Shown one piece after another: positions 41,935 to 42,452 of a stretch of 64,000 bases of DNA. The notes under the pieces are model-generated. The model was not told the origin of the DNA. It saw nothing but the letters and a program-made list of their open reading frames with translations, and did not search any database. Numbering within the stretch: position 1 is the first letter of the stretch; every line of letters starts with the position of its first letter. Made by a program: the position numbers and the translations under genes. The stretch covers positions 992,001 to 1,056,000 of the forward strand of contig NC_015578.1 of NCBI RefSeq assembly GCF_000214375.1, written 5' to 3'. The stretch is from Treponema primitia ZAS-2 (GTDB lineage Bacteria; Spirochaetota; Spirochaetia; Treponematales; Breznakiellaceae).

Positions 41935-42169
41935 ACAGCAATTTCTCAGTTTATGATGACTTTATTAGGGTAGTGACCGGGAGGGGAGGGCGATTCGCTA
42001 CTCCCCCTAACCTGTGGAGTCTGCTTACGGAGCCCGCTACACTCTTTTACGCGGTCTCCTCCAGCAGGGAATTCCAGAAAGAACCCACTTGCGTGGGGGA
42101 GGGGGGAGCAGCGAATCGCCCTCCCCTCCCTGCCGTTATCCCATATAGTTACCTTAAAGCGATTGCTGT
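41935..42169 (-). repeat. Structured repeat element, copy 1
   Basis: Outer 8-bp inverted repeats ACAGCAAT/ATTGCTGT (41935-41942, 42162-42169) bound a 235-bp unit. Inside are 29-bp arms 41979-42007 and 42102-42130 (28 of 29 paired). Between them is a core with TCTGGAATTCC and ACAGGTTA (minus strand) plus a C-C-C-A-C/G-T-G-G-G hairpin capped by GCAA. The core and flanks recur in inverted orientation at 42248-42452. The single arm mismatch becomes a G-U pair if the minus strand is the RNA. No open frame spans it. Identity unknown: structured RNA or palindromic mobile element. Confidence 0.75.
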
Positions 42170-42200
42170 GTTTTTGGTACGCAATGCCTTTTTCCCCCGA

Positions 42201-42237
42201 GGGGGGCCTGACGGCCAATTTTTCAACCAGGCCCCCC
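42201..42237. other. Hairpin between the two structured elements
   Basis: A 10-bp GC-rich stem (42201-42210 with 42228-42237) with a 17-nt loop sits in the 78 bp that separate the two inverted elements. No T-run follows on either strand, so it is not a typical terminator. Confidence 0.55.
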
Positions 42238-42247
42238 TGATCTGTTT

Positions 42248-42452
42248 ACAGCAATTCTCCTAAGGTAAATGCATGGGGATAGAGGCAGGGGCGGGCGGGT
42301 ACTACCCCCGCTCCCCGTCTCTGGAATTCCCCGCCGTAGCAGACCCGAAGGGGCTGACGGAGGCGGATTCTACAGGTTAGGGGAGTGGGGGTAGTACCCG
42401 CCCGCCCCGGTCAGTAACCCAATACAGCTATCATTAACAGAGAATAGCAGTA
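42248..42452 (+). repeat. Structured repeat element, copy 2
   Basis: This is an inverted, diverged copy of the element at 41935-42169. Arms 42288-42316 and 42380-42408 pair over 29 bp, with one G-T (G-U in RNA) at the position equivalent to copy 1. The core keeps TCTGGAATTCC, AGACC, GGGCT and TACAGGTTA; flanks keep TAAGGTAA, GGGATA and GGTCA. It lacks the GCAA-capped hairpin of copy 1, and its right outer repeat is worn. It ends 10 bp before the -35 box of the CooC-like gene. Confidence 0.75.

What the first reader, a model, noticed from the sequence alone, without database searches (positions are those of the whole stretch)
41935..42452. Two inverted structured elements with conserved core but covarying long arms
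Seen directly: 41935-42169 and 42248-42452 are inverted homologs. Their cores share TCTGGAATTCC, AGACC, GGGCT and ACAGGTTA, and their flanks share TAAGGTAA and GGTCA. Yet the 29-bp arms that enclose the core differ at about 10 of the first 21 positions, and every change is matched on the opposite arm. The one imperfect pair in each copy becomes G-U only if both are read in the same element orientation (copy 1 minus, copy 2 plus). This is what selection on RNA base pairing leaves. No known RNA or repeat family comes to mind. They sit between divergent folC and the CooC-like gene in an acetogenesis locus.
Basis: partly seen in the sequence, partly recalled or inferred. Interest (0 to 1): 0.85.

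Follow-up and report, generated by a model that had tools for sequence, protein, structure and literature searches.

The report
Mobile hairpin repeats with interchangeable stems
The two elements belong to a previously undescribed family of small mobile DNA repeats, found only in termite-gut spirochetes, whose long hairpin stem keeps changing sequence while staying perfectly paired under a fixed cap, which suggests that the folded single strand (probably RNA) matters to the element.

Summary
In detail: two inverted copies, each with a 29-bp stem that differs between copies but stays paired. The interpretation needs widening. This is not a locus-specific acetogenesis RNA. It is a dispersed repeat: 46 copies with a recognisable core in the complete 4.06-Mb genome, none inside a gene, and absent from the same site in a congener. 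Covariance models find relatives only in the same family of termite/cockroach-gut treponemes (none outside it in 393 phylum genomes). In two relatives the hairpin sits inside elements with inverted ends (CTAAACTTGACCC) and 9-bp target duplications, i.e. non-autonomous transposons (MITEs). Across 39 copies here the first 25 stem positions are 94% Watson-Crick plus 4.5% G.T (53% Watson-Crick when partners are swapped between copies). Read in element orientation, G.T exceeds A.C 46 to 7, on both DNA strands. Across lineages the cap covaries (0/500 shuffles). So a single strand of fixed orientation is folded, most likely RNA. Two cautions: double changes are often transversions, and outside this genome the G.T excess is weak or absent. 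DNA hairpin correction may therefore contribute. No transcript, transposase or cap-binding partner has been shown. Best filed as a new variant of a known kind: a structured MITE.

The parts
41935..42169 (-). Hairpin element, copy 1 (read on minus)
   Evidence: Homologous to copy 2 and to 44 other copies in the genome; fold z -9.8
42102..42130 (-). Copy 1, 5' stem arm (29 nt)
   Evidence: Inverted repeat I3; paired in the minimum-energy fold
42077..42101 (-). Copy 1, extra small hairpin module (CTCCCCCACGCAAGTGGGTTCTTTC) between 5' arm and core; also in copies at 940685 and 1498127, reversed in the 3' arm at 2256192
   Evidence: Sequence; an analogous GGACCTGCAAGCAGGTCC hairpin at the same place in relative G025
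42008..42076 (-). AGACC[loop]GGGCT ... CTCCACAGGTTA
   Evidence: Core anchors found genome-wide; covariation
41979..42007 (-). Copy 1, 3' stem arm (29 nt)
   Evidence: Inverted repeat I3; fold
42170..42247 (.). Spacer between the two divergent hairpins; holds an 11-bp G+C-rich inverted repeat (42200-42210/42228-42238)
   Evidence: I12
42248..42452 (+). Hairpin element, copy 2
42288..42316 (+). Copy 2, 5' stem arm (29 nt)
   Evidence: I1; fold
42317..42379 (+). Copy 2, conserved core: GTCTC + TGGAATTCCCCGCCGTAGCAGACC..GGGGCTGACGGAGGCGGATTCTACAGGTTA
   Evidence: Core search; alignments A1 and A2; pair counts
42380..42408 (+). Copy 2, 3' stem arm (29 nt)
   Evidence: I1; fold
41935..41990 (.). 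Left outer inverted end of the divergent pair (TACAGCAATTTCTCAGTTTATGA...)
   Evidence: I2 (41943-41990 with 42397-42444, 77%)
42397..42452 (.). Right outer inverted end of the divergent pair (...TCATTAACAGAGAATAGCAGTA)
   Evidence: I2; AAAC adjoins both outer ends, a possible but unproven 4-bp target duplication

Best explanation
The two elements are copies of a non-autonomous mobile repeat (a MITE-type element). Its body is one hairpin module: a ~29-bp stem of almost free sequence carrying a conserved ~60-nt cap. Supported by data: it is dispersed in 46 copies, intergenic, present or absent between species, and in related species framed by inverted ends and 9-bp target duplications. Also supported: in this genome the module is kept able to fold as a single strand in one fixed orientation. 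Inferred: copies are moved in trans by transposases of resident insertion sequences. Also inferred: the folded strand is RNA read through the element. My best guess for the benefit is that the cap is bound by a protein while the long stem isolates it, or lets RNase III trim it out, so that insertions between genes are tolerated. Stem sequences turn over fast because only pairing matters, probably helped by occasional hairpin-templated repair that changes both arms at once. Confidence: mobile repeat 0.9, orientation-specific single-strand folding 0.8, that strand being RNA 0.6, the insulation role about 0.25.
For: 105 BLAST matches to the region in the own genome, 52 covariance-model hits and 46 copies with anchored core, 0 of 46 inside a codon-scored gene. 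Congener G005 has no element between folC and CooC. Nine perfect 9-bp duplications around CTAAACTTGACCC ends, 8 of them with the hairpin; >=7 of 9 matches in 21% of candidate elements vs 1.3% shuffled. One element with the same ends and a 9-bp duplication lacks the hairpin (L304), so ends and hairpin are separable. Stem: 39 copies, first 25 positions, 94.2% Watson-Crick and 4.5% G.T vs 53.3% Watson-Crick with swapped partners. G.T 46 vs A.C 7; plus-strand copies 28:2, minus-strand copies 18:5, both genome halves. Cap across 32 sequences from 11 or more genomes: 99.6% of cells paired, 6 of 8 pairs change on both sides, 0 of 500 shuffles reach this. Found only in one bacterial family.
Against: No transcript evidence is available and no strong element-borne promoter was seen. 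No transposase with matching ends was found. The ends in this genome gave no clear target duplication. Double changes include many transversions (19 other transversions and 12 swaps vs 17 transitions on edges of <=6 differences), more than evolution through G.U intermediates predicts. The nearest-neighbour tree behind that count is only a proxy. The G.T excess is weak or absent in other lineages (G021 19:16; G025 27:8 but 9:6 by distinct sites).
Confidence: 0.75

Rival explanations
1. The compensated changes come from DNA hairpin correction: during replication or repair one arm is copied from the other, so both arms change together without any function in RNA.
For: Double changes are as often transversions as transitions. 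In most other lineages mismatches are near 1:1 G.T:A.C. Long perfect inverted repeats are expected to form hairpins.
Against: Strand-blind correction predicts equal G.T and A.C; here 46:7, on both genomic strands and in both genome halves. The cap covaries too, including a next-to-loop pair of three types (UA 15, CG 13, AU 3), beside an invariant T opposite an invariant G.
Confidence: 0.3
2. The fold is needed as single-stranded DNA during transposition, as with HUH (Y1) transposases of IS200/IS605 or REP elements, which read one strand only.
For: Fixed orientation of folding. Three Y1_Tnp genes in the own genome.
Against: No copy lies near those genes. G021, with 33 model hits, has no Y1_Tnp detected, though it is 66% complete. 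Related elements have inverted ends and 9-bp target duplications, as made by DDE transposases.
Confidence: 0.1
3. A locus-specific regulatory RNA pair controlling folC and the CooC-like gene.
For: The 3' end of each copy lies just upstream of a TTGACG -35 box of its neighbouring gene.
Against: 46 copies next to unrelated genes with no orientation preference. Congener G005 keeps both genes and -35 boxes without the element.
Confidence: 0.05
4. An RNA-copied (retro) element or a guide/scaffold RNA of the HEARO, retron or intron type.
For: Structured body, fixed orientation, high copy number.
Against: No reverse transcriptase (PF00078) in the complete own genome. No Rfam match. Target duplications with inverted ends in relatives.
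Confidence: 0.05

Closest known systems
BOX elements of Streptococcus pneumoniae (PMC3049150)
   Same: Short intergenic non-coding repeats, modular, non-autonomous, with a tightly folded transcript that includes the inverted ends
   Different: G+C-rich here; stem sequence is free while the cap is fixed; the same cap occurs in elements whose ends differ between species; different lineage
Correia/NEMIS and ERIC-type MITEs (PMC2229807)
   Same: About 100-200 bp, inverted ends, long stem-loop transcripts; NEMIS hairpins proposed as RNase III targets
   Different: Those have conserved sequence arms; here the arms differ between copies yet stay paired, and a separate cap carries the conservation
QMITE2 of Coxiella burnetii (PMC10969869)
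   Same: Inverted ends, 7-9 bp target duplications, body of about 113-145 bp, very stable fold
   Different: No conserved cap or compensated hypervariable stem described; unrelated sequence
REP/BIME with RAYT transposases
   Same: Hairpin repeats in divergent pairs and mosaics
   Different: Much longer stem, conserved cap, no RAYT gene near any copy

Membership tests
MITE (non-autonomous DNA transposon) | Many dispersed copies in one genome | tested here: met
   46 anchored copies, 52 model hits
MITE (non-autonomous DNA transposon) | Short and without a conserved coding gene | tested here: met
   About 165-260 bp in relatives, 205-235 bp in the window; no gene called over any of 46 cores
MITE (non-autonomous DNA transposon) | Terminal inverted repeats | tested here: met
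   CTAAACTTGACCC ends in G025 and the Gsp477 genome; outer ends of the window pair 77% inverted over 48 nt
MITE (non-autonomous DNA transposon) | Target-site duplication | tested here: met
   Nine perfect 9-bp duplications in two relatives. In the own genome not clear; only AAAC flanks the window pair
MITE (non-autonomous DNA transposon) | Presence/absence polymorphism at orthologous sites | tested here: met
   folC-CooC spacer of G005 is empty
MITE (non-autonomous DNA transposon) | Autonomous insertion sequence with matching ends | tested here: inconclusive
   IS4-type genes (PF01609) in G000, G025 and G059 had no matching inward-facing ends; relatives are fragmented drafts
MITE (non-autonomous DNA transposon) | A+T-rich (typical, not required) | tested here: not met
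   Stem-plus-core stretch 42293-42403 is 68% G+C
REP/BIME mobilised by RAYT | Linked Y1_Tnp (RAYT) gene | tested here: not met
   Three Y1_Tnp genes, none near a copy
Known Rfam RNA (including HEARO, Termite-flg, Termite-leu) | Match at curated threshold | tested here: not met
   No family reached its threshold on the hairpins; only sub-threshold chance matches, mostly eukaryotic miRNA or lncRNA models
Retroelement RNA (retron, group II intron) | Reverse transcriptase in the genome | tested here: not met
   No PF00078 match in the complete genome
Functional RNA | Covariation in excess of chance | tested here: met
Functional RNA | Transcript of defined ends | not testable with these tools
   No expression data held

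The most novel reading that the evidence does not exclude
A selfish element of bacteria whose spread depends on a folded RNA (or one specific single strand) with a fixed, protein-recognised cap on a sequence-free stem. The cap module has been captured by transposons with unrelated ends in different termite-gut spirochetes: a parasite-of-transposons RNA module with no reverse transcriptase involved.
Probability: 0.2. Interest if true: 0.85.

Novelty: new variant of a known kind. Interest (0 to 1): 0.62.

Why it matters
Short bacterial repeats are usually thought of as passive DNA with incidental RNA folds. Here dozens of paralogous copies in one genome form a natural test of whether a mobile repeat is selected as RNA. 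The strand-specific G.T excess says the folded strand has mattered, and the same cap recurs on unrelated stems and, as it appears, between unrelated transposon ends. If a cap-binding protein or an RNA-dependent step in movement were found, it would be a new way for a transposable element to use RNA. The set also allows a direct test of how compensated changes arise: selection through G.U, or hairpin-templated repair.

Tried and rejected
Rfam at permissive thresholds on the window and 10 related loci: only chance-level matches on the hairpins, plus a true SRP RNA elsewhere in L072. Reverse transcriptase as driver: none in the own genome. Y1/RAYT transposase as driver: present but not linked. 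IS4-type transposase with matching ends: not found. Cis-regulation of neighbours: gene orientations mixed (16 --, 14 ++, 10 -+, 6 +-). A first count of mismatches over 55-nt flanks gave 80:78 G.T:A.C because it ran past the stem into the outer flanks; restricting to the stem gave 48:7 and 47:4 at two stringencies. Replication-strand bias as the cause of the G.T excess: rejected, since plus and minus copies and both genome halves agree. Viral contigs: no match. Literature on repeats in T. primitia or termite spirochetes: nothing found in the open library searched.

Full report
What is in the window. Copy 1 (41935-42169, minus) and copy 2 (42248-42452, plus) are inverted homologs separated by 78 bp. 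Each is one long hairpin: outer inverted flanks, a 29-bp stem, and a cap of about 60 nt. Folding energies are -124.2 and -124.9 kcal/mol (z -9.8 and -10.9). I count 11 differences in the first 21 stem positions, all compensated; each stem has one wobble that is G.T only in a common element orientation. Copy 1 also has an extra small hairpin (42077-42101) between its 5' arm and the cap.

A genome-wide family. A DNA search of the own genome (one contig, 4,059,867 bp; from memory the size of Treponema primitia ZAS-2, not checked with a tool) gave 105 matches. A covariance model (R1, from 23 copies) gave 52 hits at E<=0.1, 39 of them at E<2e-18. Anchoring on the core gave 46 copies, 23 on each strand. 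None of the 46 lies inside a codon-scored gene, and neighbouring genes show no clear orientation preference. There are ten close pairs of copies and all ten are minus-then-plus, like the window pair; pairs in other genomes are partly divergent (e.g. three in G012) and partly tandem.

Mobility. In congener G005 (CooC 88% identical) the folC-CooC spacer is about 110 bp with both TTGAC(G/A) -35 boxes and no element. In two related genomes (G025 = Roe453_bin134, and Gsp477_bin179) the hairpin sits between CTAAACTTGACCC inverted ends. Nine elements have perfect 9-bp duplications, for example CCCTAGGCT (L182), GTTCAGAAT (L185), CTCCCCGAT (L248) and CCCTTTAGG (L298). One element with the same ends and a perfect duplication (CATAAGGAG, L304) lacks the hairpin. 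The ends in the own genome (TACAGCAATTCTCAG-type) and in G021 (AAAGACATNCAAGGTAA) look different; I could not establish their duplications, so the claim that the cap rides in transposons with unrelated ends is likely rather than proven.

The stem. In 39 copies over the first 25 stem positions, 94.2% are Watson-Crick and 4.5% G.T; re-pairing arms between copies gives 53.3% Watson-Crick (maximum 60.3% in 200 shuffles). Most positions take three or four pair types. Read in element orientation, mismatches are G.T 46, A.C 7, other 8. By distinct position and pair the strict count is 21:4 (p about 0.001). By copy, 28 have more G.T and 3 more A.C (p 5e-6). The excess holds for plus copies (28:2), minus copies (18:5) and both genome halves, which rules out a replication-strand effect. 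A strand-blind process on a palindrome cannot give this, because a G.T on one strand is an A.C on the other.

The cap. An alignment of 32 caps from 11 or more genomes keeps TGGAATTC and TCTACA-type strands nearly fixed. Eight tested pairs are standard in 99.6% of cells. Six change on both sides (35 cells vs 8.7 expected), with 0 of 500 shuffles reaching the observed paired percentage, number of pairs with two-sided change, cells or covariation score; the number of further pair types is not exceptional (185/500). The pair before TGG is U-A, C-G or A-U and covaries with the base after ACA. Outside it lie an invariant T and an invariant G facing each other, a wobble only in this orientation.

Distribution. 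Model R2 hits 17 of 244 genomes of the order and 4 of 393 of the phylum, all in the same family. An exact-pattern scan of 84,980 genomes found 112 stretches; every record title shown is a Treponema, Spirochaetaceae or Spirochaetia bacterium, mostly MAGs that I recognise as termite/cockroach-gut isolates. Presence is patchy: G000 46 copies, G005 two, G003 none.

Interpretation. By tested features this is a MITE-type element, with a G+C-rich body unlike typical MITEs. What is unusual is a fixed cap on a stem of free sequence. The orientation-specific G.T excess supports selection on a folded single strand, most simply RNA. Two results temper this. Double changes between similar copies include at least as many transversions as transitions, which hairpin-templated repair would give directly; the tree used is crude and hypervariable positions may be saturated. 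In other lineages the G.T excess is weak or absent, so the constraint may be active only here, or those copies may be too young. I therefore think both processes act: repair renews the stem, selection removes what does not fold.

Known relatives. BOX repeats of pneumococcus (PMC3049150), Correia/NEMIS and ERIC (PMC2229807) and QMITE2 (PMC10969869) are the nearest in kind. The passages I read in those papers do not mention compensated stems. They were keyword passages, not full readings, and most subscription papers are outside the library, so novelty of the family is likely but not certain.

Not done. No expression data, no complete genome of the relatives, no transposase identified; function of the cap is inferred only.

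Noticed in passing
G000 3.17-4.06 Mb and 0-0.11 Mb: None of the 46 anchored copies lies here although it is about a quarter of the genome (rough chance 4e-5 if the ten pairs count once); a core-less remnant hairpin sits at 3614384. Possibly a younger or differently organised chromosome arm.
   Followed up: partly
G000:C1 114388 (L021) and 2822099 (L038): One stem arm of each of these copies holds a long homopolymer run (about 21 G and about 37 C), breaking the stem.
   Followed up: no
L304 47-273 (G025 contig C232): Element with CTAAACTTGACCC ends and perfect CATAAGGAG duplication carrying a different, A+T-richer cargo with its own inverted repeats (AAGTCGAAAAAGTCGAA / TTCGACTTATTCGAC).
   Followed up: no
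window 42077-42101; L029; L298; L303: A small hairpin with GCAAG loop (CTCCC..CGCAAG..TTCTT, or GGACCTGCAAGCAGGTCC in G025) occurs as an optional extra module, once reversed in the 3' arm.
   Followed up: partly
G000 upstream of copies 169874, 802339, 1411590, 2605651: Truncated copies (5' halves ending in the core) lie directly upstream of intact copies, giving BIME-like mosaics.
   Followed up: no
L330 (G060 C1:163928), L333, L331: In genus g48 the element is low-copy with longer, unrelated, nearly perfect stems; in L330 it follows a class II fructose-bisphosphate aldolase-like gene.
   Followed up: partly
G000:C1 1498127 (L026): The cap is flipped relative to its flanks: the 5' flank is the reverse complement of a type A 3' flank while the 3' flank is type B.
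   Followed up: no
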